Shown here one piece after another: positions 28,534 through 46,440 of a stretch of 64,000 nucleotides of DNA. The position numbers were made by a program, and so were the translations under genes. This stretch comes from Anaerococcus marasmi. GTDB taxonomy: Bacteria; Bacillota; Clostridia; Tissierellales; Peptoniphilaceae. Location of the stretch: the NCBI RefSeq assembly GCF_900290195.1, contig NZ_OLMF01000004.1, positions 1,539,501-1,603,500 of the forward strand, written 5' to 3'. Position 1 is the first letter of the stretch. Each line of letters begins with the position of its first letter. Under the pieces are notes generated by a model. That model had not been told where the DNA came from. It did no database searches and was given only the letters and a program-made list of their open reading frames with translations.

Positions 28534-28575
28534 AAGTCGCAGGATTTCTTAAAGGATTGTCCTGTGACTTTTTCT
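28534..28575 (+). terminator. Terminator after pdxA2
   Basis: AAGTCGCAGGA (28534-28544) pairs with TCCTGTGACTT (28560-28570, one G-U), followed by TTTCTTTT. Confidence 0.85.
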
Positions 28576-28638
28576 TTTGGATTAATAAATCTCCGAAAAC
28601 TTTGATAATAATTAGAAAAAAATATACATTTGGCTGAT

Positions 28639-29471: not shown

Positions 29472-30116
29472 TTATAAATCGTTTAGATTTATACCTTTCG
29501 GTACTTCCATATGTATTAGTGTTATTTCATAAATGTGGGCAAGATCACCTTTTTCCATAGCATTTAGAATCTCTAGGTGTTCGTTATAGGTATCTTCCAT
29601 CCTACCTTCATGAGAAAGAGAAAGAATTGCTAGAGTTCTCATCTTATACATCAAGGAAGAGAAAATTGATGAAAATTGGTCGTTATCAAGATAATTAATC
29701 ATTTTAACATGAAACTTAAAGTCGTATTCGCAGAATTCTTCAATTGATTTACTAGTATTTAGAATTTTGAACATATCTTCCATATCAGTACGTAAGCTTT
29801 TGAATAAATCTTGAGCTTTTTTAGTTTTGAATTCCTTACAAATTTGTAAGGTACAATATATCTCAAGTGCTGATCTAAGTTCGAATGTCTCGTTTATATC
29901 TTTCTCTGTGATTTGATGGAGCATAAAGCCTTTATTTGGGATAATATCAATATAACCCTCCTGGGCAAGGCGGTGGACAGCATCACGCAGAGGTGTTCTG
30001 GAAATGCCAAGCTCTCTAGCTAATTTAGTCTCAGAGTATGTTTCATTATAAGATAATTTATTTTTTTTTATTAATTCTTTTAGATGATTATAAGCTATTT
30101 TATTAAGGGGAATCAT
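29472..30116 (-). CDS. GntR-family regulator, FadR (FCD) subfamily
   Basis: 214 aa. N-terminal winged helix (ETKLARELGISRTPLRDAVHRLAQEGYIDIIPNKGF, residues 28-64) and an all-helical FCD ligand domain with metal-binding residues in ELRSALE, FHVKMINYL and YNEHLEILNAM. Divergent from the ltnD-like/dtnK/gntP operon, with a palindromic operator placed between the -35 and -10 of that operon (30177-30205). It is therefore the likely repressor of the operon, with a four-carbon sugar acid as inducer. Confidence 0.9.
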   Translation of the reverse strand: MIPLNKIAYNHLKELIKKNKLSYNETYSETKLARELGISRTPLRDAVHRLAQEGYIDIIPNKGFMLHQITEKDINETFELRSALEIYCTLQICKEFKTKKAQDLFKSLRTDMEDMFKILNTSKSIEEFCEYDFKFHVKMINYLDNDQFSSIFSSLMYKMRTLAILSLSHEGRMEDTYNEHLEILNAMEKGDLAHIYEITLIHMEVPKGINLNDL

Positions 30117-30176
30117 TTAAACTCCTATTCTTTTCTTATTTATTAAGATTATACTTTAAAAAAATAATAAAAAAAC

Positions 30177-30205
30177 TTGACCGGTATACCGGTATACGAT
30201 ATAAT
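30177..30205 (+). promoter_or_regulatory. Promoter with overlapping GntR operator
   Basis: TTGACC (30177-30182), 17-bp spacer, TATAAT (30200-30205). The spacer is filled by two overlapping perfect palindromes: ACCGGTATACCGGT (30180-30193) and GTATACCGGTATAC (30184-30197). Binding here would block RNA polymerase directly. GTATAC-centred palindromes are common for FCD-type GntR regulators. Confidence 0.8.
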
Positions 30206-30272
30206 ATGAAATATAAAAACAAAACGCGTGGAAAAGGATATCCCAAATCAAAACATATAAAGGAGATTTATT

Positions 30273-31157
30273 ATGAAAACAGGATTTATTGGATTAGGAA
30301 TAATGGGTAGGCCAATGGCTAAAAACTTGATCAAAGCTGGTAAGGATCTTTTAGTATCAGATTTGAATAAGGAAGCTGTAGATCAGCTTGTAAGCTTTGG
30401 AGCAAAAGAAGCTACATACCAAGAGATTGGTAAGAAATGTGATAGGATATTCATAATGGTGCCAAGCGGAGAAATATCAAAATCTATTATTTTCTCAGAA
30501 AACGGTATCATTTCTACTGTTAAAGAAGGAACAATTGTATGTGATATGAGTTCTGTTACACCAGTTGAGTCAAAAGAATGCTACGATGGACTAAAAGAAA
30601 AGGGAGTAGGCTTTCTCGATGCGCCAGTATCAGGTGGTGAACCTGGAGCAATTGCAGGAACTTTGGCAATCATGGCGGGAGGAGATGAGGAAGTTTTCGA
30701 TCAAATGAAGGAATATTTCGATATTCTAGGCTCATCTTATCTTTTGATAGGAGAATCAGGTAGCGGTAGTGTCACCAAACTAGCTAATCAAGTGATTGTT
30801 AATAATACTATAGCAATCGTTTCCGAGGCCTTTGTTCTAGCTGCAAAAGCAGGAGCTAATCCTAGCAAAGTTTACGAAGCTATTAGAGGAGGGCTTGCAG
30901 GAAGTGCTGTTCTTGATGCTAAAATCCCAATGATAATAGAAAGAAACTTCAAACCAGGTGGACCTATACGTATAAACCACAAGGATATAAAAAACGTTAT
31001 CAACACAGCACATTCAATAGATGTACCAATGCCATATACAGCTCAACTATATGAGATTTTACAAGCACTAAAAGTTCATGGTCATATGGAAGACGATCAT
31101 GGTGGAATTGCTCAATATTTTGAGGAACTTGCTGGTATTCAGATTAAAAATAATTAG
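30273..31157 (+). CDS. Beta-hydroxyacid dehydrogenase (LtnD/GarR-like)
   Basis: 294 aa. NAD(P)-binding GFIGLGIMGRPMAKNLIKAG at the N-terminus, substrate-binding FLDAPVSGGEPGA (about residue 115), and the catalytic lysine in GSVTKLANQVIVNN (about 170). The family includes tartronate-semialdehyde reductase (GarR/GlxR) and L-threonate 2-dehydrogenase (LtnD). Next to a DUF1537 kinase and a GntP permease, an LtnD-like oxidation of a four-carbon aldonate is favoured over tartronate-semialdehyde reduction; sequence alone does not settle it. First gene of the operon behind the GntR operator. Confidence 0.8.
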   Translation: MKTGFIGLGIMGRPMAKNLIKAGKDLLVSDLNKEAVDQLVSFGAKEATYQEIGKKCDRIFIMVPSGEISKSIIFSENGIISTVKEGTIVCDMSSVTPVESKECYDGLKEKGVGFLDAPVSGGEPGAIAGTLAIMAGGDEEVFDQMKEYFDILGSSYLLIGESGSGSVTKLANQVIVNNTIAIVSEAFVLAAKAGANPSKVYEAIRGGLAGSAVLDAKIPMIIERNFKPGGPIRINHKDIKNVINTAHSIDVPMPYTAQLYEILQALKVHGHMEDDHGGIAQYFEELAGIQIKNN

Positions 31158-31175
31158 GATAAAGGAGATATAATC

Positions 31176-32600
31176 GTGGGAATAAGCGCTGATATATTAA
31201 AATCATATAAAAGTATAGATGAAAAGTATGTAGACAATCTTTTAAGTGAGGAAATAGCAAAAAACAATAACAAGATTGTAGTTTTGGATGATGATCCTAC
31301 AGGTGTACAGACTGTAAACAATATTTCTGTCTATACAAACTGGGAAAAAGATACTATTCGTGAAGCTTTCAAGGAAGATAATAATTTATTTTATATATTA
31401 ACCAATTCAAGAGGCTTTACAGAAGAATATACCAAAAAAGTCCATGAAGACATAGCTAATGTAGTAGATGAAGTAGCTAAAGAGTTTGGAAAGGAATATA
31501 TCTTCATAAGTAGAAGTGATTCAACCCTAAGAGGTCATTACCCAACCGAGACAGAAGTCCTAAAAAGAAACTATGAGAAAAATACAGGTAAGAGAATAGA
31601 TGGAGAAATCCTATGTCCTTTCTTTAAAGAAGGAGGACGCTTCACAATTGATAATGTACATTATGTTAAGTACGGAGATCAATTGATTCCTGCAAACGAG
31701 ACTGAATTCGCAGAGGATAAAACTTTCGGATACAAGGCAGCGAATATGCCGGACTATGTTGAAGAAAAAACTAATTCAAAATATAAGGCTAGCGATGTAG
31801 TATGTATTTCACTAGATGAAATACGTAACCTAGAAATTGATGCTATTAAAGAAAAGCTTATGAACATTAATAATTTTAATAAAATCATCGTAAATGCTAT
31901 TGATTATGCAGATATAAAGGTATTTTGTGTGGCTTTGTATCGTGCCATGAATGAAGGAAAAGTATTTATGCTCAGAACTGCAGCAGCTATAGTCAAGATC
32001 ATGGGAGAAGTTAAAGATAAGCCTCTGCTTACGAGAGAGGAAATGATTGTCGATGAAGTTGGTAACGGTGGAGTAATAATCGCAGGATCACACACTAACA
32101 AGACAAGTAAGCAAATAGAAGAGTTAAAGAAATTAGACAACGTTGAATTTATCGAGTTAGATGTTTCTTTAGTAAAGGATGAAGAAAAGTTTAAAGAAGA
32201 AATAAATAAATGCATTGAAAAAGAAGAAGAATTAATAAGAAACGGAAAGACAGTATGCTGCTATACAAGCAGATCCCTAATCACTGCAGATACAGGGGAT
32301 AAGGAAGATGAATTAAAGCTTTCTGTAAAAATCTCAGATGCTGTTCAGTCTCTAGTAGGTAAGCTTAAAGTTAGACCAGAGTTTATTATTGCCAAGGGTG
32401 GTATAACATCAAGTGATATCGGAACTAAGGCGCTAAAGGTAAGAAGGGCAAATGTTCTAGGACAAATAAAACCTGGAATTCCTGTATGGCAAACTGGAGA
32501 AGAGAGTTTATTTCCTAACATTTCTTATGTAATATTTCCTGGAAATGTTGGAGAGGATACGACTCTAAGAGAAGCTGTAGAAGTTTTAACAAAAAAATAA
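31176..32600 (+). CDS. Four-carbon acid sugar kinase (DUF1537; DtnK/OtnK family)
   Basis: 474 aa, GTG start at 31176 behind AAAGGAGATATAATC. These kinases phosphorylate threonate, erythronate or their 2-keto derivatives at O-4. The N-terminal domain has VVLDDDPTGVQTVNN (residues 34-48) and SRSDSTLRGHYPTE; the C-terminal nucleotide domain has the AKGGITSSDIGTKAL motif and FPGNVGEDTTL. Length and both domains are intact. Its product is the expected substrate of the PdxA2-type enzyme at 27527. No OtnC aldolase or OtnI isomerase gene is adjacent. Confidence 0.9.
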   Translation: MGISADILKSYKSIDEKYVDNLLSEEIAKNNNKIVVLDDDPTGVQTVNNISVYTNWEKDTIREAFKEDNNLFYILTNSRGFTEEYTKKVHEDIANVVDEVAKEFGKEYIFISRSDSTLRGHYPTETEVLKRNYEKNTGKRIDGEILCPFFKEGGRFTIDNVHYVKYGDQLIPANETEFAEDKTFGYKAANMPDYVEEKTNSKYKASDVVCISLDEIRNLEIDAIKEKLMNINNFNKIIVNAIDYADIKVFCVALYRAMNEGKVFMLRTAAAIVKIMGEVKDKPLLTREEMIVDEVGNGGVIIAGSHTNKTSKQIEELKKLDNVEFIELDVSLVKDEEKFKEEINKCIEKEEELIRNGKTVCCYTSRSLITADTGDKEDELKLSVKISDAVQSLVGKLKVRPEFIIAKGGITSSDIGTKALKVRRANVLGQIKPGIPVWQTGEESLFPNISYVIFPGNVGEDTTLREAVEVLTKK

Positions 32601-32612
32601 AAGGTATAAATT

Positions 32613-33884
32613 ATGGATATTACAATTACAACTTTGGGCGCACTCCTTGGCCTGGCAGTAGCTATAATTCTAATTATAAAAAAGATAGAACCCTCCTATA
32701 GTATGATTGCTGGAGCCTTTGTAGGTGGTATTGTTGGAGGCGCTGGAATAGAAGGAACAGTAGCTGTCATGATTGAAGGTGCCCAAGGAATAATGCCAGC
32801 AATCCTTAGAATACTGACCTCAGGTATCTTAGCTGGTGTATTAATAGAATCGGGGGCTGCCAATAAAATCGCAGAAAAGATTATTTCTATTTTGGGAGAA
32901 AAGAGAGCCCTCTTATCCCTAGCCCTTGCTACAATGATTCTAACTGCCGTTGGAGTTTTTGGAGATGTTGCCATTATAACTGTAGCTCCTATTGCTTTAG
33001 TGATAGGAAAGAAGATAAATTGCAGCAAATTTGTACTTTTGGCTACATTGATGGGTGGAGAAAAAGCCGGAATGGTAATTTCTCCAAATCCTAATACTAT
33101 TGCTGCTGCAGAAAACTTTGGGGTTGACTTATCAGCCCTTATGATGGCAGGTCTTATTCCTGCAATAGTCGGCTTGATATTTACAGTTATAATCTGTACT
33201 TACTTGGCTAAAAGAGAATCTAGGAAGAATGTAGTTTACGATTATAGTGACTTAGATGATAATCAATCAAAGACTCAATTACCTTCGTTTTTTGGATCTA
33301 TAATTGGTCCTTTGCTTGCGGTTGTCTTATTAATGCTAAGACCTATATGTGGAATTAATATTGATCCTCTCATAGCTCTACCTTTTGGGGCGATAGTGGG
33401 CCTCTTATGTATGGGACAAATTAATAAATTTAGAGAGTATTTTTCATTTGGTCTAGGTAAAATGATGCCGGTAGCAATACTTCTAATTGGTACGGGAACG
33501 ATTTCAGGGATTATAAAGACCTCCAATTTTCAAAATGATATGATCCTAGTACTTGAAGCCCTTAAGCTTCCTGCTTTCCTACTAGCACCAGTATCTGGTA
33601 TTGTGATGGCAGCAGCAACAGCATCTTCATCAGCTGGAGCAACTATTGCATCAGTAACATTTGCAGAACAAATCACTATGGTAGTTCCAGCTATCAATGG
33701 AGCTGCTATGCTTCACGCAGGAACCATAGTCCTAGATTCCTTGCCACACGGGTCTGTTTTTCATGCATCAGCAGGAGCTATGGAGATGCCAATAAAAGAG
33801 AGAATGAGACTATTACCTATAGATATGATCTTAGGTTTTATAATAGTTCTTACATCAACAATAGTATATGGTGTGTTTATCTAG
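32613..33884 (+). CDS. GntP-family sugar-acid:proton symporter
   Basis: 423 aa with about 11-12 membrane helices. The glycine-rich GAFVGGIVGGAGIEGTVAVMIEGAQGIMPAILRILTSGILAGVLI and MVISPNPNTIAAAENF motifs and the C-terminal ASSSAGATIASVTFA/HGSVFHASAG repeats are typical of GntP/GntT-type permeases. In this operon it presumably brings in D-threonate, erythronate or a similar aldonate. Ends 30 bases before the IS30 remnant; no terminator was seen, perhaps lost to the insertion. Confidence 0.88.
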   Translation: MDITITTLGALLGLAVAIILIIKKIEPSYSMIAGAFVGGIVGGAGIEGTVAVMIEGAQGIMPAILRILTSGILAGVLIESGAANKIAEKIISILGEKRALLSLALATMILTAVGVFGDVAIITVAPIALVIGKKINCSKFVLLATLMGGEKAGMVISPNPNTIAAAENFGVDLSALMMAGLIPAIVGLIFTVIICTYLAKRESRKNVVYDYSDLDDNQSKTQLPSFFGSIIGPLLAVVLLMLRPICGINIDPLIALPFGAIVGLLCMGQINKFREYFSFGLGKMMPVAILLIGTGTISGIIKTSNFQNDMILVLEALKLPAFLLAPVSGIVMAAATASSSAGATIASVTFAEQITMVVPAINGAAMLHAGTIVLDSLPHGSVFHASAGAMEMPIKERMRLLPIDMILGFIIVLTSTIVYGVFI

Positions 33885-35049: not shown

Positions 35050-35943
35050 ATGAAAATAATTAATTTCGGATCTATCAATATTGATATATTCTTTGCGGTA
35101 GATCACATAGTTAGACCAGGTGAGACTATTAGTGCAAGATCTATAGAAAAAAGAGCCGGAGGTAAGGGGCTTAATCAATCGATAGCTCTTGCGAAGAACT
35201 CTGATTCTGTATACCATGTAGGAAATATCGGCATCGATGGCAAGTTTTTGGCAGAATATTTGGAAAATGAGAAGATAAATACTGAATATGTGAGAGAAAG
35301 TAAAAGTCTTACAGGAAACGCCCTAATTCAAGTTGATGATAAGGGAGAAAATTCCATAGTTTTATACAAGGGAGCAAATTTCGACAACGATAAGGACTTT
35401 GTAGATAGAGTATTTGACCATTTTGATGAAAACGATATATTGGTCTTACAAAATGAGATAAATATGATGGACTATATTATCGATAGGGCCTACGAAAAGG
35501 GCTTAAAGATAGTCTTAAACCCTTCACCAATCACAGAAGAGGTCAAGAAATTTGACTATGACAAGATCGATATGCTACTTTTAAATGAGCATGAGGCTAA
35601 AGCCATAAGTGGTAGGGAAGGATTCGACGATAATATAAAATATTTTAAAGAAACTTATCCAAATCTTAAGCTAGTCATAACCTTGGGCAAGGAAGGGTCA
35701 ATTTATATATCAGAGGAAGAGACTATAAGACAAAAGGCCAAAAAGGTTAAGGCTATTGATTCTACAGGGGCAGGAGATACATTCACAGGATACTTTGTAG
35801 CGAATTTCTACCAAGGAAAAAAAGTCAAGGATTGTCTTGAGCTTGCAACTTCAGCATCAGCCCTATCTGTTACCAAAAAGGGAGCGAGCGCTTCTATCCC
35901 AAGCCGTTTAGAAGTAGAGAAAGAGACTTCGAAGAAGTTGTAA
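35050..35943 (+). CDS. Ribokinase (PfkB family) with altered C-terminus
   Basis: 297 aa from ATG 35050, behind GTGGGGAGGATTT. N-terminal [20 protein letters not shown] and [16 protein letters not shown] are ribokinase-type substrate-binding motifs; the ATP/anion-hole motif is [15 protein letters not shown] (about residue 236), and VTLGKEGS precedes it. The end reads ...[20 protein letters not shown]: the last few residues are encoded by the out-of-frame 5' part of a transaldolase remnant that begins at about 35917. The native C-terminus of the family lies at about the same place, so the enzyme may still work. Substrate probably ribose or a related pentose/aldose. Confidence 0.85.
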
Positions 35944-36466
35944 AAGAAATATGCCAAATCGTAGACGGCCCTGTTTCTGCGGAAGTTACAAGTTATGAAT
36001 ATGAAGGGATGGTCGAAGAGGCTAGAAAGCTTTCCAAATGGGCTGATAATATCATAGTCAAAATCCCTATGACAGAGGAAGGTCTCAAGGCAATCAACAC
36101 CCTAAGCGAAGAAGGAATCAAAACCAATTGCACCTAATATTTTCTCTATCTCAAGGGATCATGGCTATGAAGGCAGGAGCGACTTATATCTCTCCATTTA
36201 ATGGAATAGTTGATGATATGGGCGAAGATGGCATGAGACTAATCTATAATCTTAAAACAGTCCTAGACAACTACGTCCTAGAAAGTGAAATCATAGCAGT
36301 CTAAATCAGAACAAACAAATACCTAGAAGGAGCAGTCATAGTAGGCGCCCACATAGCCACAATCTCAGGCACCTTATTTGAAAAAATGTGGACCCATCCA
36401 CTAACAACACAGGGAATTGAAAGCTTCAAAAAAGACTGGGACAGCTTCATAGAGAAAAGTAAGTAA
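35917..36466 (+). pseudogene. Transaldolase remnant fused to the ribokinase end
   Basis: From about 35917 the DNA closely parallels 43744-44280 of the intact transaldolase gene (for example GAGACTTCGAAGA, AAAGAAATATGCCAAATCGT, TATGAATATGAAGGGATGGT). It lacks the first ~38 codons, has a 1-base frameshift near 36137 and stop codons (for example TAA at about 36303). It ends with TAA at 36464-36466. Produced by a recombination that joined ribokinase to a second transaldolase copy. Confidence 0.85.
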
Positions 36467-36590: not shown

Positions 36591-36801
36591 CTAAAGAAAG
36601 TATTAGATACAGTTTGACTAGATATAAGCAGTTCAATGCGATAAGTTGGACTAAATATTAACTTTTTATCTTAGTATATATAACAAGAAATATATAAGTA
36701 CAAAGATGTGGAAAAAAAGATGTGGAAACTCTATGATAACGTATTCATTGACTATTTATTTAGATGTTTATATAATTACTAATATCAGGAGGATGAATTT
36801 A
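36591..36801 (+). promoter_or_regulatory. Leader region of the PTS operon
   Basis: AT-rich stretch holding the promoter of the operon; no -35/-10 pair stands out. AAAGATGTGGAAAAA is partly repeated in tandem (AAGATGTGG at about 36703 and 36719). AGGAGG at 36788 serves the ATG at 36802. Confidence 0.35.
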
Positions 36802-37701
36802 ATGTTAATAAAATTGATAGGATTAGGTAAAATGGGCTTTAATTTAGCTCTTAATATGAAAGACAATGGAATTGATGTTGTAGGATACGATATTACAGAA
36901 ACAGCTTTAGCAAAGGCTAATGAAAACGATATTAAAACATCAAAAGATCTAAAGAGTCTAATATCAAATGAAGATAGAAACATTGTTTGGGTCATGTTAC
37001 CAGCTGGTAATATAACAAACGATACAATAATAGAATTGTCTAAGACTCTTAACAAAAATGATATAGTAATTGACGGAGGCAATTCTAACTATAAAGACAG
37101 TCTTCGAAACACACGAATTTTAGAGGAAAAAGGGATATGTTTTTTTGATGTTGGAACATCTGGAGGAGTCAATGGTGCTAGAAATGGAGCCAGTCTAATG
37201 GTTGGAGGACCCGAAGCTATATATAATAATCTTCTAGAAGATGAATTATTTTTAAAGATTTCTGCAGAAGGTGGATGTTTATATACAGGAGAAGCTGGTA
37301 GTGGACATTATTTAAAAATGATACACAATTCTATGTTATATGGATTTATGCAAACTCTAGGTGAAGGTTTTGAACTTCTAGAAAAAAGTGATTTTAATTA
37401 TGATTTAGAAGAAGTAGCTTTATCCTTAAGTAAGTCTAGTGTTATAAGATGTTGGTTATTAGAATTGCTAGCTAATGCATTTTCTAAAGACGCAGATTTA
37501 TCTAAAATAAAAGATGTTGTAAGCTCAAGCAAGACAACATTAAATACTATTGAATCAGCATTTGAACTAGATGTTCCAATACCTATTATATCAACTTCAT
37601 TGATGATGAGACTAAGATCTGAGCAAGATGAATCTTTCTCTGCAAAAGTAATAGCTTCTTTAAGAGATGAAGTGGGAGGTCATAAACCTAAATCAAAGTG
37701 A
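36802..37701 (+). CDS. 6-phosphogluconate dehydrogenase-like protein lacking the catalytic glutamate
   Basis: 299 aa from ATG 36802 (AGGAGG ten bases upstream); the size and sequence match the short, NAD-type 6PGDH group (YqeC-like). Seen: KLIGLGKMGFNLALNM nucleotide loop, VWVMLPAG, IVIDGGNSNYKDS, GTSGGVNGARNGASLMVGG, and the C-terminal SFSAKVIASLRDEVGGH. The catalytic segment reads GHYLKMIHNSMLYG, whereas 6PGDHs read GHxVKMVHNGIEYG: the lysine, histidine and asparagine are kept but the glutamate acting as general acid in decarboxylation is leucine. It may therefore oxidise C3 of a 6-phospho-hexonate without completing decarboxylation, leaving that to the UlaD homologue in the same operon (inference). 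First gene of the PTS operon; overlaps the regulator gene. Confidence 0.8.
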   Translation: MLIKLIGLGKMGFNLALNMKDNGIDVVGYDITETALAKANENDIKTSKDLKSLISNEDRNIVWVMLPAGNITNDTIIELSKTLNKNDIVIDGGNSNYKDSLRNTRILEEKGICFFDVGTSGGVNGARNGASLMVGGPEAIYNNLLEDELFLKISAEGGCLYTGEAGSGHYLKMIHNSMLYGFMQTLGEGFELLEKSDFNYDLEEVALSLSKSSVIRCWLLELLANAFSKDADLSKIKDVVSSSKTTLNTIESAFELDVPIPIISTSLMMRLRSEQDESFSAKVIASLRDEVGGHKPKSK

Positions 37702-39568
37702 GAATAATTTGAAACAAGATAGACTAATCAAAATAATTGAAAATTTAATATTAACCGATGAGATTCAAACCATTAGTGATATATCTAAGAATCTTGGAGT
37801 GTCAGAAAGAACTGTCCGAACAGATTTAGATCAAATAGAAATTTTTCTATCAAGCTATCGATTAAAATTGGTTAGAAAACCAGGAGTTGGAGTTTGGGTT
37901 GAGGGAAAAGAAGAAAATAAAATCAAATTCTTAAACGACCTTAATAACAAAGATATAGAGAATAGATATTCTAAACAATGGGTTATTAATTCAATTTTAA
38001 TAGATATTTTAATTAATGAAGGAGAACTTAATAAAGAGTATTTTTCTAGAAAATATTTTGTTAGTAAATCACTTTTAAATAAATATATAACTGATTTGAA
38101 AGGTATATGTGTTAATAATAATTTGGATGTTAGAATTAATTCTAAGCATTATTTCTATATATACGGTAATCAAATGAATAAAGTTAATTTTTTATACAAG
38201 CTATTAAAGAATAAAATTAACAAAGATTATATAACAGAACAGAGTGATTTCGTTATAAATATGTTTATTGAAGTTAGTGAGTTATTAAAAGAATGGTTTG
38301 AGGAAGGTATTGATGAGTCTATTAGTAATAAACAAATTGAAGATATAACATATTTTATAATTTCTATAATGTTGATGCCTGATTTTTCAATGTGTAAAGA
38401 CTATATAGATAAAAATATATATGGACAGATTTTAAAATTTAATTTGAATTTAGATGGATTTATTTATAATTTAGAAAAAAAAATTAAAAGACATATTAGT
38501 AGTATCGAAAAGAAATATATAATAATTAAAATATATGAAAAATTAATTATATTTGATAAGTACAAGATTGATGAATTAAATTTAAAATCAAATCTGATTT
38601 TAGATGATTATATCAATAATTTATATGAGTTATTTAATTTTGAATTTAAAATAGACAAAAATGTATACTGTGCTTTTATTAATCACTTGAGCCAGATTAT
38701 TTATAGAGCGAAGAATAAGTTATCTATTTACAATCCGCTTAATATTGAAATAAAGGAAAATTACAAAAAATATTTTTATATTACTAAAATTATTAATTCT
38801 AGTTTTAATAAAATATTAAGAATTGAAATAAATGATGATGAAATAGCTTATATATCTCTATATATGTATATAATTCTTGAAAATAGAACGAAAAAAATAA
38901 AAGTTGGTGTGATATGTCAATATGGTGTTGGAGTATCAAAATCTTTAATATTTAGGTTGGAGAACGAGTATCCAAATATCAAATTTTATTCAATAGGGAT
39001 TAATGATTACTATAAATATAATAAATTAGATATGTACCTATCAACAGTTAATACAGATTTGTTCGAAAACTTTATTATGATAAGTCCATTTTTAGATGAA
39101 GGTGATAAAGCTAGAATAAACAAACATCTAGGAAATTTAGAAAATAACTACTCTTTGATACAGAAATATCATATAGAAATAATAGACTTTGAAATAACTT
39201 CAAAAGAATTGTTAAAATTAAGTTGTATAAAACTACATGAATTAGGATATGTGAAAGAAGGCTATTACGATAGTGTTCTTGATAGAGAAAAAATAGGTTC
39301 AACTGAAATAGGGAATGGTGTAGTGTTAACGCACGGGATACCTAAACTTGTAAATGAATCAGTAATATATTTTAACATACTAAAAAAACCTGTATTATGG
39401 AAAGATGAAGAGGTTGATTTGGTAGTGATACTTTCATTAACGGAAGACGATAGTAAAAAAAGTATTGATCTAAATTGGCTATGGAAATTTTTAAATAGTG
39501 ATAAGTTAAAGGGAGTAAGAAATGTTGACAGGAAAGAAGAATTTATTGAATTGATTTTATCAAATTAG
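37667..39568 (+). CDS. PRD-type PTS-controlled transcriptional activator (MtlR/LicR-like)
   Basis: 633 aa if started at ATG 37667; a TTG at 37709 is a plausible later start. Domains: helix-turn-helix (TISDISKNLGVSERTVRTDLDQIE, about residues 35-60), a second DNA-binding/linker part, two PTS-regulation domains (about 180-390), a IIB-like domain whose phosphorylation cysteine lies in VICQYGVGVSKS (about 418), and a IIA-like domain with the histidine in LTHGIP (about 560). Such proteins activate their operon when unphosphorylated by their own PTS. Visibly more AT-rich than the genes around it. Lies between the 6PGDH-like gene and the PTS genes it should control. Confidence 0.85.
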   Translation: MKWEVINLNQSENNLKQDRLIKIIENLILTDEIQTISDISKNLGVSERTVRTDLDQIEIFLSSYRLKLVRKPGVGVWVEGKEENKIKFLNDLNNKDIENRYSKQWVINSILIDILINEGELNKEYFSRKYFVSKSLLNKYITDLKGICVNNNLDVRINSKHYFYIYGNQMNKVNFLYKLLKNKINKDYITEQSDFVINMFIEVSELLKEWFEEGIDESISNKQIEDITYFIISIMLMPDFSMCKDYIDKNIYGQILKFNLNLDGFIYNLEKKIKRHISSIEKKYIIIKIYEKLIIFDKYKIDELNLKSNLILDDYINNLYELFNFEFKIDKNVYCAFINHLSQIIYRAKNKLSIYNPLNIEIKENYKKYFYITKIINSSFNKILRIEINDDEIAYISLYMYIILENRTKKIKVGVICQYGVGVSKSLIFRLENEYPNIKFYSIGINDYYKYNKLDMYLSTVNTDLFENFIMISPFLDEGDKARINKHLGNLENNYSLIQKYHIEIIDFEITSKELLKLSCIKLHELGYVKEGYYDSVLDREKIGSTEIGNGVVLTHGIPKLVNESVIYFNILKKPVLWKDEEVDLVVILSLTEDDSKKSIDLNWLWKFLNSDKLKGVRNVDRKEEFIELILSN

Positions 39569-39578
39569 GAGGTACATA

Positions 39579-40037
39579 TTGGACTTTAGTGAAGTGTTAG
39601 ATAAAGGGTGTATAAAGTTAGAATTAGATTCTACTGAAAAAGATGGGGTGATCAATGAATTAGCTAGTATTCTTTATGAAAATCATAAAATTAATAATTT
39701 AGAAAAATTTATTGATGATGTATACAAAAGAGAAGATATGGGAGTTACTGGAATGGGAAATAGCATAGCTATTCCTCATGGGATTTCAGAACAAGTAAAA
39801 AGCCCATGTGTTGCCATAGGTAAAGCAAAAAGTGAGGTAAAATGGGAATCAATCGATGACACGCCTGTAAGACTTATATTTTTAATGGCTGTTCCTAATG
39901 GGGATAACAACAAACAACATTTAAAGATTTTATCTAAATTATCGTCCTTCTTGGCATATGAATCAAATATAAAATTGATAATGGAAAGTAAAAATAATGA
40001 GCAAGTAATGAACTATTTAAAGGAGTATTTAAAATAA
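39579..40037 (+). CDS. PTS IIA component, fructose/mannitol type
   Basis: 152 aa, TTG start at 39579 behind AGGAGGTACAT. The phosphorylated histidine lies in MGNSIAIPHGISEQVKSP (about residue 67), preceded by KREDMGVTGMG, both typical of the EIIA type-2 domain. Accepts phosphate from HPr (such as 10726-10992) and passes it to IIB. Followed at 10 bases by the IIB gene. Confidence 0.92.
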   Translation: MDFSEVLDKGCIKLELDSTEKDGVINELASILYENHKINNLEKFIDDVYKREDMGVTGMGNSIAIPHGISEQVKSPCVAIGKAKSEVKWESIDDTPVRLIFLMAVPNGDNNKQHLKILSKLSSFLAYESNIKLIMESKNNEQVMNYLKEYLK

Positions 40038-40047
40038 AGGAGGAAAA

Positions 40048-40362
40048 ATGAAGGTGGTAGGAATTACATCTTGTACTGTAGGTATTGCGCACACATATAT
40101 GGCAAGAGAAAAACTAATTAGTGCAGGTGAAAAACTAGGTTGGGATGTAAAAGTTGAAGCTCAAGGAAGTGGAGGAGTAGAGTTTGCACTTACTCAGGAA
40201 GAAATTGATAATGCTGATTTTGTACTAATTGCTTCGGATGTTACTACAGATGGTATGGAGAGATTTAAAAATAAGCCTCTAATAAAAGTTCCTATAGCAG
40301 TAGCGTTAAAATCACCAGAAGGATTATTATTAAAAATTGAGAAACAGTTGAATAGGAGTTGA
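40048..40362 (+). CDS. PTS IIB component, fructose type
   Basis: 104 aa. Fructose-type IIB with the phosphocysteine in GITSCTVGIAHTYMAREKL (about residue 8; most relatives have CPTGIAHT, here CTVGIAHT). Then VKVEAQGSGGVEFALTQEEIDNADFVLIASDV and ERFKNKPLIKVP as expected. RBS AAAGGAGGAAAA. IIC follows immediately. Confidence 0.93.
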   Translation: MKVVGITSCTVGIAHTYMAREKLISAGEKLGWDVKVEAQGSGGVEFALTQEEIDNADFVLIASDVTTDGMERFKNKPLIKVPIAVALKSPEGLLLKIEKQLNRS

Positions 40363-40363
40363 T

Positions 40364-41431
40364 ATGATTAAAAATATTTTTAAAAATTTTAGACAACATG
40401 CATTAACTGGAATTTCTTATATGATTCCTGTTATAGTTATAGGTGGATTTTTAACGGCTATAGCAAGATTAATAGGGAATGTTGACGTTGAAGGTAGTGT
40501 AGGATATTATTTTTTAACAGCTGGGGGCGTAGCATTTTCATTAATGATGTCTGTGTTATGCGCTGGAATAGCATTTTCAATATGTGGTAAACCTGGTATA
40601 GCCCCTGGAGTAGTAGCTGGATATTTAGCTACTCAGATAAATGCTAGTTTCATAGGAGCGTTAGTATCTGCGTTTATTATTGGCGTACTCATTGTTACTA
40701 TGCAAGAAAAATTACCAAAACACAAGGCGTTAAAATCCATTTACCCTATAGTAGTATATCCTGTTATCGCTGCAATAGTATCTAGTTTGGTTTTATTAAT
40801 TGTTATTGGACCACCAATTGCAGCAGCGACACAAATAGTAGTTGATTTCTTCATGGGTCTTAACACTAGTTCAAGATTTTTGTTTGGATTTATGATGGGT
40901 GCAATGACTGGATTTGATATGGGTGGACCTATTAATAAAATACAATTTGCAGTAGTTAGTGCATTCGCAGCATCAGGATATTATGGACCTGCTGCAGGAA
41001 AAAATGCCGCTGCGATGTCTCCACCTTTAGGCTTAGCTATATCAGCATTGATATTAACACCACATAAGTATACAGAAGAAGAAAGAGAAGATGCAAAGGT
41101 TGCTATAGCAATGTCGTTATGCCAAGTTACAGAAGGCGCGTTACCATTTGCCTTTAAAGATCCTAAGAGGGTAATACCTGCAGTAACAATCGGTTCAGGC
41201 GTTGCCCACGGATTGGTATTAGCATTTGGTGTAACAGTTCCTGTACTACACGGTGGAGTATTTTCGATTCCATTAACTAGTAATCCTCTAATTTGGATTG
41301 GATGCTATCTAGCTGGAGCAGTGGTTACTGCTATAATTGTATCAGTTACAAAACCAAAAAACCCGGTATATATTGAAGAAAAAGAAGAAGATTTAGACGA
41401 AGATTTTGAAATAAACATAGAAAATATTTAG
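40364..41431 (+). CDS. PTS IIC component, fructose type
   Basis: 355 aa with about 9-10 membrane helices. N-terminal FKNFRQHALTGISYMIPVIVIGG and central GFDMGGPINKIQFAV motifs mark the fructose-family IIC domain; the end is acidic and cytoplasmic (KEEDLDEDF). Separate IIA, IIB and IIC polypeptides rather than the fused FruA form suggest a non-fructose substrate. With UlaD/E/F homologues downstream, an aldonate or other sugar acid is likely. The very AT-rich style of coding changes just after this gene. Confidence 0.9.
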   Translation: MIKNIFKNFRQHALTGISYMIPVIVIGGFLTAIARLIGNVDVEGSVGYYFLTAGGVAFSLMMSVLCAGIAFSICGKPGIAPGVVAGYLATQINASFIGALVSAFIIGVLIVTMQEKLPKHKALKSIYPIVVYPVIAAIVSSLVLLIVIGPPIAAATQIVVDFFMGLNTSSRFLFGFMMGAMTGFDMGGPINKIQFAVVSAFAASGYYGPAAGKNAAAMSPPLGLAISALILTPHKYTEEEREDAKVAIAMSLCQVTEGALPFAFKDPKRVIPAVTIGSGVAHGLVLAFGVTVPVLHGGVFSIPLTSNPLIWIGCYLAGAVVTAIIVSVTKPKNPVYIEEKEEDLDEDFEINIENI

Positions 41432-41459
41432 TCGGAAAAATTTTAGTAAGTAGGTAAAG

Positions 41460-42152
41460 ATGTTTGAAGAATTAAGAGAAAGAGTTTACCAGGCGAATTT
41501 ACTCTTGCCTAAATATGGCCTAGTCAAATTTACTTGGGGCAATGTATCAGAAATAACTGAAGATAGGAAATATGTAGTTATCAAACCATCTGGAGTGGAA
41601 TATGACCAAATGAAAGCTTCAGACATGGTTGTAGTAGATATGGATGGCAATGTCGTAGAAGGTGATTTAAAGCCTTCTAGTGACACTCCAACTCATATAG
41701 AGCTATACAAAAGTTTCCCAGAAATATCAGGCATTACCCACACCCACTCAAGATGGGCGACAATCATGGCACAGGCAAAACAAGATGTAAAAGCAGCTGG
41801 CACAACCCACGCAGATTATTTTTATGGACCAATTCCAGTAACAAGGGATATGACCAAGGAAGAAATAGAAGGCCAATATGAGAAAAATACAGGACTTGTA
41901 ATCATAGAAACCTTCAAAGAAAGAAATATAAAGGCGGATGAAGTTCCAGCAGTCTTAGTTGCCAATCACGGACCATTTACCTTTGGCAAAGACGCAGGAG
42001 ATTCAGTATTTCACTCAGTGGTATTAGAAGAAATTGCCTTTATGGATTGGCACTTGGAATCAATTGGAAAGAAAGATTCGATGAGCCAAGACCTACTTGA
42101 TAAGCATTATCTAAGAAAACACGGAGAAAATTCATATTATGGACAAAACTAG
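41460..42152 (+). CDS. ulaF: L-ribulose-5-phosphate 4-epimerase (UlaF/AraD type)
   Basis: 230 aa. Class II aldolase fold; interconverts L-ribulose-5-P and D-xylulose-5-P. Zinc ligands are His-His in THTHSRWAT (about residues 93-97) and a third His in the VVLEEIAFMDWH region's vicinity; the substrate loops TWGNVSEI, KPSGVEYD and SSDTPTHIELY are typical. Start ATG 41460; it overlaps ulaE by 14 bases. Confidence 0.93.
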   Translation: MFEELRERVYQANLLLPKYGLVKFTWGNVSEITEDRKYVVIKPSGVEYDQMKASDMVVVDMDGNVVEGDLKPSSDTPTHIELYKSFPEISGITHTHSRWATIMAQAKQDVKAAGTTHADYFYGPIPVTRDMTKEEIEGQYEKNTGLVIIETFKERNIKADEVPAVLVANHGPFTFGKDAGDSVFHSVVLEEIAFMDWHLESIGKKDSMSQDLLDKHYLRKHGENSYYGQN

Positions 42153-42969
42153 CTTAGGCATATACGAAAAGGCCATGCCAGATCAGCTTAACATCCATCA
42201 AAAATTGCAACTTGCCAAGGAAATCGGCTTTGACCAAGTAGAAATAAGCATAGATGAAAGTGATGCAAAGCTAAATAGGTTTTTTTCAGGCTTTGCATAT
42301 AACTTAGCCAAGGCCCAAAGAGATGAAGGAATTAGGGTCAGGACCATGTGCCTATCAGGTCACAGGAAATATCCTCTAGGATCTATGGATGAAAATATTA
42401 GAAAAAAGAGCCTTGAAATAATGAAAAAGGCTATAGAATTTTCTGATATCAATTCTATTAGGATAATTCAACTGGCAGGCTATGATGTCTACTATGAAAA
42501 AGGAAACGAAGATACAAAAAAATATTTTATAGAAAACTTATCTAAGTCAGTAGATATGGCTGCAAAATACGGGGTGATCCTAGCCTTTGAAACCATGGAA
42601 ACTGAATTTATGGATACAGTAGAAAAGGCTATGAAATATGTAAAACTAATAGACAGCCCATACCTCGGCATATATCCAGATATAGGAAATCTAAAAAATG
42701 CAGCTGTCAAATATGGAACAGATGTAGTCGAAGATTTAAAACTCGGCAGAGGCCATATTTTTGCAGCCCACCTAAAGGAAACAAATCCCGGAATCTACAG
42801 AGATATGACCTTTGGTTCTGGTGGCCATACTGAATATGAAAGATGCATAGAAGAGTTAAAAGATCAGGGAGTAAGACTCTACACTGGTGAGTTCTGGAAC
42901 CATGGTGAAGAAAATTATAAGGAAATAATCACAGATGCCTACGGATTTTTGACAGGCAAATTAGAATAA
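42139..42969 (+). CDS. ulaE: L-ribulose-5-phosphate 3-epimerase (UlaE type)
   Basis: 276 aa TIM-barrel protein. Converts L-xylulose-5-P to L-ribulose-5-P. Metal ligands visible as Glu in LAFETMET, Asp in IYPDIGN, His in AAHLKET and Glu in TGEFWNHGEE; N-terminal LGIYEKAMPDQLN is family-typical. Coupled to ulaF; followed by ulaD. Confidence 0.93.
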   Translation: MDKTSLGIYEKAMPDQLNIHQKLQLAKEIGFDQVEISIDESDAKLNRFFSGFAYNLAKAQRDEGIRVRTMCLSGHRKYPLGSMDENIRKKSLEIMKKAIEFSDINSIRIIQLAGYDVYYEKGNEDTKKYFIENLSKSVDMAAKYGVILAFETMETEFMDTVEKAMKYVKLIDSPYLGIYPDIGNLKNAAVKYGTDVVEDLKLGRGHIFAAHLKETNPGIYRDMTFGSGGHTEYERCIEELKDQGVRLYTGEFWNHGEENYKEIITDAYGFLTGKLE

Positions 42970-42981
42970 ATGGAGAGAAAA

Positions 42982-43617
42982 ATGACAAAACCAAAATTAC
43001 AAATAGCTTTAGATAGCCAAAATTTAGGCGAAGCCCTTGAAACAGTTAGGGAAGTTGGAGATGTTGTAGATATACTTGAAGTGGGAACAGTTTTGTGCCT
43101 ACAAGCAGGTATGGAACCTGTTAGGGCCATAAGAGCCTTATATCCAAACAAGGATATTCTAGCTGATACTAAATGTGCAGATGCAGGTGGAACAGTTGCA
43201 AAAAACTGCAAAGACGCAGGCGCAAATATAATGACAGTTATTTGCTGTGCTACAATTCCAACTATGGAAGCTGCTAAGAAAGAAATTGACACTTTACAAG
43301 TAGAACTTTATGGAGATTGGACCTTTGAACAAGCCCAACAATGGATGGATATAGGAATTGATCAAGTGGTTTACCACCAATCGAGAGATGCCCTCTTATC
43401 TGGCGAAACTTGGGGAGAAAAGGACCTAAATAAAATCAAAAAATTAATTGACATGGGCTTTAAAGTCTATGTGACAGGCGGACTTGATGTAAATAGCCTA
43501 GAACTATTTAAGGGAATTGATGTTTATGCCTTTATAGCTGGCAGGGGAATTGCTAAGGCAGAAAATCCAAAACAAGCTGCTATTGATTTTAAAGAAAAAA
43601 TAAACGAAATATTTTAA
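42982..43617 (+). CDS. ulaD: 3-keto-L-gulonate-6-phosphate decarboxylase (UlaD type)
   Basis: 211 aa from ATG 42982, preceded by GGAGAGAAAA; an ATG at 42970 is further from any site. OMP-decarboxylase-type barrel: Asp in IALDSQN, Glu in ILEVGT, Asp-x-Lys in [11 protein letters not shown]. The YHQSRDA motif carries the His and Arg that distinguish 3-keto-gulonate-6-P decarboxylases from hexulose-phosphate synthases. Makes L-xylulose-5-P plus CO2. The cluster has no lactonase UlaG and no ascorbate-type PTS, so the source of the 3-keto acid is probably not ascorbate (see findings). Confidence 0.92.
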
Positions 43618-43634
43618 TTGTGAGTTTTAAAACA

Positions 43635-44282
43635 ATGAAATTTTTCTTAGACACAGCAAATGTAGACGAAATAAAAAGAATAAACGACCTAGGTCTTTGT
43701 GATGGAGTAACTACCAATCCATCTATTATCAACAAAGAAGGAAGAGACTTCGAAGAGGTTGTTAAAGAAATATGCCAAATCGTAGATGGCCCTGTTTCTG
43801 CAGAGGTTACAAGTTATGAATATGAAGGGATGGTCGAAGAGGCTAGAAAGCTTTCCAAATGGGCTGATAATATCATAGTCAAAATACCTATGACAGAAGA
43901 AGGACTTAAGGCAATTAAAACCCTAAGCGAAGAAGGAATCAAAACCAACTGCACCCTAATATTTTCTTTATCCCAAGGGATCATGGCTATGAAGGCAGGA
44001 GCAACTTTCATATCTCCATTTATGGGAAGAGTTGATGATATGGGCGAATCAGGTAAAAAGTTAATAGAAAATTTAAGAAAAGTCATAGATATCTACGGCT
44101 ATGACTCAGAAATAATTGCAGCAAGTATAAGGCATAACAAGCACCTAGAAGAAGCAGCTCTCGCAGGGGCTCATATTGCCACCATTCCAGGGAAGCTTTT
44201 CGACAAACTCTGGACCCACCCACTTACCACAGCAGGAATCGAAGCCTTCAAGAAAGACTGGGATGCCTTTGAAAATAGATAG
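43635..44282 (+). CDS. tal: Transaldolase, TalC/MipB small type
   Basis: 215 aa from ATG 43635 ([13 protein letters not shown], the standard start). Schiff-base lysine in [25 protein letters not shown] and [33 protein letters not shown] follow. The SPFMGR motif has Phe where fructose-6-P aldolases have Tyr, favouring a true transaldolase. A decayed second copy lies at 35917-36466. It handles sugar phosphates made from D-xylulose-5-P together with the transketolase next door. Confidence 0.92.
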
Positions 44283-44407: not shown

Positions 44408-46396
44408 ATGTTTAATAAAAATGATAGGTTAGCAGTAAATGCTATAAGAGCTTTGTCCATAGCTCAAGTAGAAAAGGCCAACAGTGGACACCCAGGTCTA
44501 CCAATGGGAGCAGCTCCTATGGCTTATGTTTTGTATAACAAGATTCTTAAGGCAAATCCAGAAAATGCGAACTGGTTCGATAGGGATAGATTTATCCTAT
44601 CAGCAGGTCACGGTTCATCCATGCTTTATTCCTTGCTTCATCTTTCAGGCTACAAGCTTTCCATGGATGAACTTAGGGAATTTAGGCAAATTGGTTCCTT
44701 AACTCCAGGACATCCTGAGTATGGTTATACCGAAGGAGTTGAAGTTACAACAGGTCCTTTGGGTCAAGGTATAGCCCAAGCAGTAGGAATGGCAATTGCT
44801 GAAAAGCATATGGCTGCCCTCTACAACAAGGAAGAAGCTAAGATAATCGACCACTACACCTACGCTTTGTGTGGAGATGGAGACCTAATGGAGGGAGTAT
44901 CCTACGAGTCTATGTCTCTTGCCGGTCATCTTAAGCTTGATAAGCTAATCGTTCTTTATGATTCAAACGATATTTGTCTTGATGGAGACCTTAATACATC
45001 CTTCTCTGAAAATGTAGAAGCGAGAGTTAAGGCACAAGGCTGGAACTATCTAAGGGTAGAAGATGGAAATGACCTAGAAGCGATCTACGACTCTATCATT
45101 AAGGCAAAAGAAAATACAGACGGACCAACCCTTATAGAAGTTAAGACTGTAATAGGCTATGGTTCAGCAAACGCCGGAACTAACAAGGTTCACGGAGCAC
45201 CAATTGGATCAGATGACTTTGCTGCTGCAAAGAAAGTTTACGCTTGGGATTATCCAGACTTTGAAATCCCTGAAGAAGTCTACGAGACTTTCAAAAATGG
45301 AGTAGGAAGTAAGGGAAAAAAAGCAAATAATAAGTGGGAAGAATACTTAAAATCCTACCAAGAAAAATATCCAGAAGACTACAAGGAACTTATGGCAGGA
45401 ATCAATAGAGAACTTCCAGAAAACTTCATGGATCAGGTCAAAAAATACGACTCATCAATGAAGGCACTTGCTACAAGAGCATCTGGTGGAGAAATCATCC
45501 AAGATCTTGCTAAAATCACAAGAAACTTCTGGGGAGGATCAGCAGACCTATTCTCATCAAACAAGACAAACATCAAAGACTCCAAGGCCTTCAGAGACGA
45601 AAGCCCAGAAGGAAGAAATATCTGGTATGGAGTAAGAGAATTTGCCATGGCTGCTATAGGAAATGGTATCATGGCCCACGGAGGAAGCTTCCACCATGTA
45701 TCTACCTTCTTCGTATTTTCAGACTACTTAAAAGCTGCCGTTAGACTATCAGCCCTATCAGGACTTCCACTAACATACGCAATGACCCACGATTCAGTAG
45801 CTGTCGGAGAAGATGGACCAACCCACGAGCCAATCGAGCAACTTGCTATGCTTAGAGCAATACCAAACACCATTGTCCTAAGACCAGCAGATGCTAACGA
45901 GACAAGACTTGCTTGGAAAGTTGCCCTAGAAAGCAAAGACAAGCCAGTAGTAATAGCCCTAACTCGTCAAGGAGTTCCAAACCTCAAAGAGACAGAAGAG
46001 ATTGATAATATCGACAAGGGAGCCTACATCATAAAGGATGCTGAAAACCCAGACCTAGTATTAATAGCAACAGGATCAGAAGTAGCCCTAGCAATAGAAA
46101 CCTCCAAGGCCCTAGAAGAAGAAGGAAAAAATATAAGAGTAGTATCAATGCCTTCTATGGAACTTTTCAGAGCTCAAGATAAGGCCTACAAGGAAGAAAT
46201 CCTTCCAAAAGGAGTAAAGAAAGTTTCAATCGAAATGGGAACAACATTCGGTTGGGCAGAATGGACAGGAGCTTGTGGCCTAAACATAGGAATAGATAGA
46301 TTCGGAATCTCAGGCAAGGGAGACTTAGTACAAGAAGAACTCGGCTTTAGCGTAGAAGCTATCAAAGAGAAAATTGACGAGAGATTTTTTAAATAA
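44408..46396 (+). CDS. tkt: Transketolase
   Basis: 662 aa, full length. Thiamine-diphosphate enzyme of the non-oxidative pentose phosphate pathway. N-terminal ANSGHPGLPMGAAPMA, cofactor motif CGDGDLMEGVSYESMSLAGHLKLDKLIVLYDSN, pyrimidine domain MTHDSVAVGEDGPTHEPIEQLA, and C-terminal TTFGWAEWTG are all present. Placed last in the operon, it draws off the D-xylulose-5-P made by UlaF. Depends on thiamine, which links it to the thi operon in the same window. Confidence 0.97.
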   Translation: MFNKNDRLAVNAIRALSIAQVEKANSGHPGLPMGAAPMAYVLYNKILKANPENANWFDRDRFILSAGHGSSMLYSLLHLSGYKLSMDELREFRQIGSLTPGHPEYGYTEGVEVTTGPLGQGIAQAVGMAIAEKHMAALYNKEEAKIIDHYTYALCGDGDLMEGVSYESMSLAGHLKLDKLIVLYDSNDICLDGDLNTSFSENVEARVKAQGWNYLRVEDGNDLEAIYDSIIKAKENTDGPTLIEVKTVIGYGSANAGTNKVHGAPIGSDDFAAAKKVYAWDYPDFEIPEEVYETFKNGVGSKGKKANNKWEEYLKSYQEKYPEDYKELMAGINRELPENFMDQVKKYDSSMKALATRASGGEIIQDLAKITRNFWGGSADLFSSNKTNIKDSKAFRDESPEGRNIWYGVREFAMAAIGNGIMAHGGSFHHVSTFFVFSDYLKAAVRLSALSGLPLTYAMTHDSVAVGEDGPTHEPIEQLAMLRAIPNTIVLRPADANETRLAWKVALESKDKPVVIALTRQGVPNLKETEEIDNIDKGAYIIKDAENPDLVLIATGSEVALAIETSKALEEEGKNIRVVSMPSMELFRAQDKAYKEEILPKGVKKVSIEMGTTFGWAEWTGACGLNIGIDRFGISGKGDLVQEELGFSVEAIKEKIDERFFK

Positions 46397-46410
46397 ATCC
46401 TAAAATATAA

Positions 46411-46440
46411 GGTGCGTCTTAACTGGCGCATCTTTTTTCT
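46411..46440 (+). terminator. Terminator of the PTS-tkt operon
   Basis: GGTGCGTC-TTAACT-GGCGCATC hairpin (two G-U pairs), followed by TTTTTTC. Confidence 0.85.

What the first reader, a model, noticed from the sequence alone, without database searches (positions are those of the whole stretch)
36802..44282. Split 6PGDH-like/UlaD route: a candidate new PTS-fed sugar-acid pathway
Seen: the 6PGDH-like protein keeps the Lys, His and Asn of the active site (LKMIHNSMLYG) but has Leu where 6PGDHs have the general-acid Glu (VKMVHNGIEYG). The same operon encodes a separate PTS (IIA, IIB, IIC of fructose type) and UlaD, UlaE, UlaF homologues, but no UlaG lactonase or ascorbate-type PTS. Known: 6PGDH oxidises C3 and then decarboxylates using that Glu; UlaD decarboxylates 3-keto-L-gulonate-6-P. 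Inference: the PTS imports a hexonate as its 6-phosphate (for example L-gulonate), the 6PGDH-like enzyme stops at the 3-keto acid, UlaD removes CO2 to L-xylulose-5-P, then UlaE and UlaF give D-xylulose-5-P for Tal and Tkt. I know of no described pathway that divides the 6PGDH reaction this way.
Basis: partly seen in the sequence, partly recalled or inferred. Interest (0 to 1): 0.78.

Follow-up and report, generated by a model that had tools for sequence, protein, structure and literature searches.

The report
Sugar-acid operon with altered phosphogluconate dehydrogenase
An anaerobic bacterium and several lactobacilli share a gene cluster in which a dehydrogenase that normally oxidises a sugar acid and also strips off carbon dioxide has lost a residue tied to the second half of that job, and sits beside a separate carbon-dioxide-removing enzyme, which points to an undescribed way of eating a rare sugar acid.

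Summary
The short 6PGDH-like protein (36802-37701) has Leu at the Glu190 position; 98 of 98 distinct comparison short 6PGDHs have Glu. It is not a private oddity. Five further clusters (a Lacticaseibacillus paracasei plasmid, a Ligilactobacillus salivarius plasmid, three genomes of one Lactobacillales genus) carry the same set: Leu-type 6PGDH, PRD-type regulator, fructose-type IIA/IIB/IIC, UlaD, UlaE, UlaF. All six 6PGDHs have Leu and form one clade. UlaG and ascorbate IIC are absent from the six stretches read and present in 11 of 11 other UlaD loci read. Of 66 loci around Glu-type genes none has UlaE, UlaF or this IIC. Six same-genus genomes have closely related UlaF-E-D genes (73-94%) behind a normal ascorbate front end, so the window carries a swapped front end. 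The substrate is inferred: L-gulonate or L-idonate. No enzyme was assayed. Open-access searches showed no description.

The parts
36748..36776 (+). promoter-like site (TTGACT-17-TATAAT) ahead of the transcription unit
   Evidence: best of 51 matches, 11 of 12 positions; the total is not above shuffles (48.2), so a consensus match only
36802..37701 (+). Leu-type short 6PGDH paralogue (GndL): predicted NAD+-dependent hexonate-6-phosphate 3-dehydrogenase, non-decarboxylating
   Evidence: (TIGR00872 318.7 bits)
37667..39568 (+). PRD-type transcription regulator with EIIA-2 domain
39579..40037 (+). PTS IIA, fructose type
   Evidence: TIGR00848 above cut-off
40048..40362 (+). PTS IIB, fructose type
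   Evidence: TIGR00829 above cut-off
40364..41431 (+). PTS IIC, fructose type; 53-55% identical to the IICs of the lactobacillus clusters
   Evidence: (TIGR01427 above cut-off)
41460..42152 (+). UlaF/AraD: L-ribulose-5-phosphate 4-epimerase
   Evidence: NF006047 above cut-off (TIGR00760 below its cut-off)
42139..42969 (+). UlaE: L-ribulose-5-phosphate 3-epimerase
   Evidence: TIGR00542 above cut-off
42970..43617 (+). [quoted passage not shown]
   Evidence: (NF009832 above cut-off; NF009831 below its cut-off)
43620..44282 (+). FSA/TalC-type transaldolase
   Evidence: TIGR00875 above cut-off
44408..46396 (+). transketolase, last gene of the operon
   Evidence: TIGR00232 913.9 bits, above cut-off; terminator-like site at 46409-46434; present next to FSA in 5 of 6 same-genus stretches

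Best explanation
The operon encodes a PTS-fed catabolic route for an L-hexonate (L-gulonate or L-idonate most likely). IIA-IIB-IIC import it as the 6-phosphate. GndL, a short NAD+-dependent 6PGDH that has lost the general-acid Glu and changed its GEGKWT loop, oxidises C3 and releases the 3-keto-hexonate 6-phosphate. UlaD decarboxylates this to L-xylulose 5-phosphate; UlaE and UlaF give D-xylulose 5-phosphate; the FSA-type transaldolase and transketolase pass it to glycolysis. Shown here: gene content, the Leu substitution, its conservation in a clade, its linkage to UlaDEF and this PTS, absence of UlaG, and the front-end exchange. Inferred: NAD+ use (Asp30), each reaction, and the substrate.
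For: Leu at the Glu190 position in 6 of 6 cluster enzymes, Glu in 98 of 98 others. Ser-Gly-Gly, Lys, His, Asn, Arg270 (E. coli R287) and tail Arg288 are kept in the four Leu-type rows aligned column by column; the fold is predicted well (pLDDT 89.3) and matches solved 6PGDHs best. Six clusters, three gene arrangements, two on plasmids, all with UlaD, UlaE, UlaF and the same kind of PTS. UlaG and UlaA: 11 of 11 UlaD loci without GndL, 0 of 6 stretches with it. 0 of 66 loci around Glu-type genes have UlaE, UlaF or this IIC. Window UlaD is 94% identical to a same-genus UlaG-linked UlaD but 60-63% to lactobacillus ones, so the link to UlaDEF probably arose at least twice. The ten best plasmid records of the window IIC are the same ten that hold relatives of the L. 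paracasei Leu-type enzyme at 60% or more; then IIC scores fall from 350 to 206 bits. The genome has no G6PDH match (9 of 14 control genomes ring).
Against: No assay. Glu190 protonates the enediol after decarboxylation and binds the substrate carboxylate (PMC8900737, passages read), so its loss does not prove that CO2 is kept. The known UlaD substrate has the L-gulonate configuration at C2, whereas the parent enzyme's geometry fits L-idonate: one of the two enzymes would have to tolerate a change. NCBIfam's decarboxylating equivalog TIGR00872 scores GndL above cut-off. By plain identity GndL is no closer to the other Leu-type enzymes (48-50%) than to the best Glu-type ones (52%); with the trait columns removed its nearest rows by path are Glu-type, though the Leu clade stands at SH-aLRT 95. 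Three of six clusters come from one genus.
Confidence: 0.62

Rival explanations
1. GndL still oxidises and decarboxylates its L-hexonate 6-phosphate by itself, giving L-xylulose 5-phosphate directly; UlaD is kept for another substrate or as a safeguard.
For: Lys183, which assists decarboxylation in 6PGDH, is kept; a 3-keto acid can lose CO2 unaided (general chemistry).
Against: UlaD is kept in 6 of 6 clusters, two on plasmids and in three gene orders, while Glu is lost in all six.
Confidence: 0.13
2. GndL works as a reductase or at C2: the PTS imports an oxidised ascorbate product (2,3-diketo-L-gulonate) as its 6-phosphate and GndL reduces it with NADH to 3-keto-L-gulonate 6-phosphate for UlaD.
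For: Fits the UlaD substrate exactly and would drain NADH in a fermenter; related beta-hydroxyacid dehydrogenases act as reductases or at C2 (GarR, LtnD; recalled).
Against: The clade nests inside C3-oxidising 6PGDHs and keeps their Lys/His/Asn/Ser arrangement.
Confidence: 0.09
3. GndL is an ordinary 6-phosphogluconate dehydrogenase and its neighbours are coincidental.
For: Family models call it decarboxylating 6PGDH; it is the only 6PGD-domain protein over cut-off in the genome.
Against: Glu190 and the GEGKWT loop are lost; no G6PDH match in the genome; linkage 6 of 6 against 0 of 66.
Confidence: 0.03
4. GndL acts on a different PTS substrate whose product is not the usual UlaD substrate, with UlaD following it, or GndL is catalytically silent.
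For: Substrate is unproven; promiscuity of this decarboxylase is in the title of Wise et al. 2005 (seen only in the reference list of PMC10176493).
Against: Window UlaF, UlaE and UlaD are 90, 88 and 94% identical to those of a same-genus ascorbate operon, leaving little room for a shift; catalytic residues of GndL are kept.
Confidence: 0.13

Closest known systems
Short NAD+-dependent 6-phosphogluconate dehydrogenase (TIGR00872; GntZ/YqeC/Gnd2 type, names recalled)
   Same: Descent, length, NAD-binding fold, Lys/His/Asn/Ser-Gly-Gly, Asp for NAD+
   Different: Glu190 to Leu, GEGKWT loop replaced, Phe of the FGGH tail changed; linked to a separate decarboxylase
L-ascorbate Ula pathway (ulaABCDEF and ulaG)
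   Same: UlaD, UlaE, UlaF and, in the window's genus, the FSA and Tkt genes
   Different: UlaG and the ascorbate PTS are replaced by GndL and a fructose-type PTS, so an oxidation replaces a lactone hydrolysis
yiaK-S/sgb route of E. coli (enzymology recalled; operon named in passages of PMC4324149)
   Same: A nicotinamide-linked enzyme upstream of a UlaD homologue giving L-xylulose 5-phosphate
   Different: YiaK is of another family and acts before phosphorylation by a kinase (recalled); no PTS
Four-carbon acid sugar pathways with LtnD/OtnK/OtnC (recalled, Zhang et al. 2016)
   Same: A 6PGDH-superfamily dehydrogenase and a separate decarboxylase
   Different: Four-carbon substrate, kinase instead of PTS, class II aldolase-type decarboxylase; not a 6PGDH

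Membership tests
Short NAD+-dependent 6PGDH (TIGR00872) | Model score above curated cut-off | tested here: met
   318.7 bits against 297.2
Short NAD+-dependent 6PGDH (TIGR00872) | Catalytic Lys183, His186, Asn187, Ser128-Gly-Gly | tested here: met
   kept in 4 of 4 Leu-type rows aligned; Lys, His, Asn seen in the other two
Short NAD+-dependent 6PGDH (TIGR00872) | General-acid Glu190 of oxidative decarboxylation | tested here: not met
   Leu in 6 of 6 cluster enzymes; Glu in 98 of 98 others
Short NAD+-dependent 6PGDH (TIGR00872) | Converts 6-phosphogluconate to ribulose 5-phosphate and CO2 | not testable with these tools
   needs purified enzyme
L-ascorbate Ula pathway | UlaD, UlaE, UlaF | tested here: met
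L-ascorbate Ula pathway | UlaG lactonase | tested here: not met
   no match in the window with 11 of 11 controls ringing; no candidate in the genome (no control of its own)
L-ascorbate Ula pathway | Ascorbate-type EIIC (UlaA) | tested here: not met
   operon IIC is fructose type; no UlaA match in the window or in the two EIIC-GAT loci; the rest of the genome was not searched with UlaA itself
Fructose-type PTS | IIA, IIB, IIC model scores above subfamily cut-offs | tested here: met
   TIGR00848, TIGR00829, TIGR01427
Fructose-type PTS | Transport of a hexonate | not testable with these tools
   substrate inferred from neighbours only

The most novel reading that the evidence does not exclude
A 6PGDH clade has given up decarboxylation and become an L-idonate- or L-gulonate-6-phosphate 3-dehydrogenase, handing its 3-keto product to UlaD: the one-enzyme oxidative decarboxylation of the pentose phosphate pathway split into two enzymes and moved, as a front-end cassette with its own PTS, onto the lower half of ascorbate catabolism.
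Probability: 0.55. Interest if true: 0.72.

Novelty: new variant of a known kind. Interest (0 to 1): 0.62.

Why it matters
If true it is an undescribed PTS-fed route for L-hexonates in an Anaerococcus-like anaerobe and in lactobacilli, and it shows how a textbook two-in-one reaction can be divided during evolution. The two plasmid copies read here are annotated 'phosphogluconate dehydrogenase (NAD(+)-dependent, decarboxylating)', so the Leu signature would correct annotations and flux models. The natural swap of UlaG for GndL in otherwise matching operons makes the prediction directly testable.

Tried and rejected
First motif search (K-M-x-H-N-x-x-L-Y-G at DNA level) found only the window among 398 genomes; it was too strict, since the lactobacillus enzymes read KVIHNAILH. 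The protein scan of the 84,980-species collection (six exact peptide patterns) returned 66 loci, all Glu-type (65 short and one long enzyme). Considered and set aside: private degeneration of one gene (against it: six conserved members and a confident fold); a hexulose-6-phosphate synthase instead of UlaD (302 bits against 130); a link to the pneumococcal ula2 operon (PMC4324149 passages: different genes). Structure prediction and fold search only confirmed the 6PGDH fold; the two-subunit active site was not modelled. The figure of 8e-5 for UlaG against GndL ignores relatedness and is not used as a probability. Paper searches: on the pathway and 20, 72 on mechanism; listings only were seen, except passages of PMC10164179, PMC8900737, PMC4324149, PMC10176493 and PMC3928093 and the abstract of PMC5306355. 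The 11 papers listed were not opened; I take their matches to be mentions of 3-keto-L-gulonate 6-phosphate. Rows dropped before the count of 98: ORFs under 250 aa and matches under 270 aa (such as L014, L076, L079), duplicate proteins, copies of the window gene, two long 6PGDHs (both Glu) and two other beta-hydroxyacid dehydrogenases (both Val).
Full report
WHAT IS THERE. The window lies in a 2.13 Mb genome (G000) of the same genus as a genome (G059) whose contig length, 1,884,085, equals that of Anaerococcus vaginalis ATCC 51170, so it is taken as an Anaerococcus or near it. From a promoter-like site at 36748 to a terminator-like site at 46409 runs one co-directional set: short 6PGDH-like (GndL, 36802-37701), PRD-type regulator, PTS IIA, IIB, IIC of fructose type, UlaF, UlaE, UlaD, FSA-type transaldolase, transketolase.

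THE SUBSTITUTION. GndL reads GHYLKMIHNSMLYG where E. coli Gnd reads GHYVKMVHNGIEYG. Leu179 stands at E. coli E190. Glu is found in 75 of 75 non-window rows, in 98 of 98 distinct full-length short 6PGDHs after removing duplicates and fragments, in 19 of 19 rows (at least one a repeat) and in 5 of 5. In a comparison of four of the Leu-type enzymes, eight positions hold one residue in at least 95% of the Glu-type and never in the Leu-type: S177, L179, S212, D238, K244, T245, N248, V291 in window numbering; K244, T245 and N248 lie in the GEGKWT loop. Kept in all four: the GxGxMG motif, Asp30 (NAD+ preference, inferred), Ser-Gly-Gly, Lys172, His175, Asn176, Arg270 (E. coli R287) and Arg288 (that this equals the tail Arg446 of long enzymes is inferred). 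A review names Lys183 as general base and Glu190 as general acid, the latter mainly by mutagenesis, and has Glu190 bind the substrate carboxylate (PMC8900737, passages read). In two other beta-hydroxyacid dehydrogenases (E. coli GarR and the window's GarR-like protein) the aligned residue is Val.

RELATIVES. A UlaD search of plasmids matched 194 records; I read three of them (H1, H2, H13). H2, a Lacticaseibacillus paracasei plasmid (NZ_CP029538), has PRD regulator, gnd, a small protein, IIA, IIB, IIC, UlaD, UlaE, UlaF; its gnd reads KVIHNAILHAE, Leu again. A search with that gnd found nine Ligilactobacillus salivarius plasmid records at 65.9% identity, counted as one (NZ_CP114513 read), with FSA and Tkt in the set. 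A profile of three Leu-type enzymes over 395 Lactobacillales genomes gave 145 genomes with a match, one far above the rest (496 against 386 bits) and Leu-type; of the 30 matches given loci only that one lacked Glu. Its genus (21 genomes, 8 with a match at the cut) holds three Leu-type genomes and five Glu-type. The genus of L. chiayiensis (30 genomes) gave one match at the cut, Glu-type. Among 249 genomes of the window's order (12 with a match) and 398 of its phylum (35 with a match, 20 given loci), only the window gene was Leu-type among the matches read. So the type is rare and scattered: six clusters in all, and weaker matches without loci were not read.

LINKAGE. All six clusters hold UlaD, UlaE, UlaF and fructose-type IIA-IIB-IIC, in three arrangements: the window has UlaF-E-D after the PTS; L. 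paracasei and the three genomes of one genus have UlaD-E-F after the PTS; L. salivarius has UlaE-F before the regulator and UlaD after the PTS. In L179 the regulator is split in two ORFs. A tblastn control settles the front ends: UlaG and UlaA match in 11 of 11 UlaD loci without a Leu-type gnd (L094-L103, L105) and in 0 of 6 stretches with it (window, L104, L116, L147, L179, L180). The whole window genome gave no UlaG candidate (no positive control of its own). As a further control, 66 loci around gnd genes with Glu have no UlaE, UlaF, IIB or IIC match, two UlaD matches at 30-32% identity (probably hexulose-6-phosphate synthases), one weak IIA and one FSA match; some of these loci are cut short by contig ends. 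The window IIC, searched against plasmids, returns first the same ten records that hold Leu-type relatives (350-354 bits) and then drops to 206, so transporter and dehydrogenase travel together.

FRONT-END SWAP. Six other genomes of the genus carry a UlaR-like regulator, UlaG, UlaC, UlaA, UlaB, UlaF, UlaE, UlaD, FSA and, in five of the six stretches, Tkt. Their UlaF, UlaE and UlaD are 73-94% identical to the window's (one UlaE lies in two ORF pieces); the nearest, G033, 90, 88 and 94%. The window UlaD is only 60-63% identical to the lactobacillus ones, while the window IIC is 53-55% identical to theirs and at most 39% to other plasmid IICs listed. The Leu-type enzymes form one clade: SH-aLRT 100 with four members, 95 with six after removing the motif, loop and tail columns. 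Against an overly neat picture: GndL's highest identity is to a Glu-type enzyme (52%), and in the second tree its nearest rows by path are Glu-type, so its branch is long and old. The simplest account is that a GndL-PTS-regulator cassette replaced the ascorbate front end in this lineage, and that the joining to UlaDEF happened at least twice.

MECHANISM. If UlaD, UlaE and UlaF keep their known roles, the incoming compound must become 3-keto-L-gulonate 6-phosphate or its C2 epimer. A PTS gives the 6-phosphate; a 6PGDH-like enzyme gives oxidation at C3; UlaD takes off CO2. Bookkeeping of configurations (the Fischer patterns are recalled) leaves four hexonates that give L-xylulose 5-phosphate: L-idonate, L-gulonate, L-galactonate, L-talonate. 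L-idonate differs from D-gluconate only at C5; L-gulonate differs at C2 and C5 but gives the exact UlaD substrate. Both are formed on the fungal D-glucuronate route (PMC5306355, abstract). I put L-gulonate and L-idonate about level and the others well behind. The genome lacks a G6PDH match and any other 6PGD over cut-off, so a housekeeping role in the oxidative pentose phosphate pathway is unlikely.

LIMITS. Nothing was assayed. Loss of Glu190 makes a non-decarboxylating enzyme likely, not certain. NCBIfam's decarboxylating model accepts GndL above cut-off. Three of six clusters are from one genus and six of eleven comparison loci from another, so counts are not independent, and 191 of 194 plasmid records matched by UlaD were not read as UlaD loci. 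Seven open-access searches on the pathway listed no paper that I recognised as describing it; subscription papers are not covered.

VERDICT. It is a new variant built from known enzyme families.

Noticed in passing
35920-36466: Remnant of a second FSA-type transaldolase gene (ORF pieces 90% and 68% identical to the operon's own), with stops and a frame break, directly after a ribokinase-like ORF; possibly a scar of the operon rearrangement.
   Followed up: partly
27527-33884: Four-carbon acid-sugar-like module: PdxA-type dehydrogenase, GntR-type regulator on the other strand, GarR-like dehydrogenase (2-hydroxy-3-oxopropionate reductase model above cut-off), a weakly D-threonate-kinase-like protein, a GntP-like permease.
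   Followed up: partly
L104:5511-5852, L116:10872-11186, L147:9059-9379: A small protein of about 105-113 aa between gnd and IIA in the lactobacillus clusters; the L104 one has no NCBIfam match at E 1e-10. There is no room for it in the window, where the regulator overlaps gnd.
   Followed up: no
L036 and L038, about 8.5 kb from gnd: Anaerococcus obesiensis and A. vaginalis carry an ordinary Glu-type gnd on the same stretch as a close relative (64-65%) of the window's ribokinase-like gene.
   Followed up: no
G000:C1:40838-41974 and G000:C2:1369640-1370770: Two EIIC-GAT family PTS proteins elsewhere in the genome that do not match UlaA at E 1e-3; substrate not worked out.
   Followed up: partly
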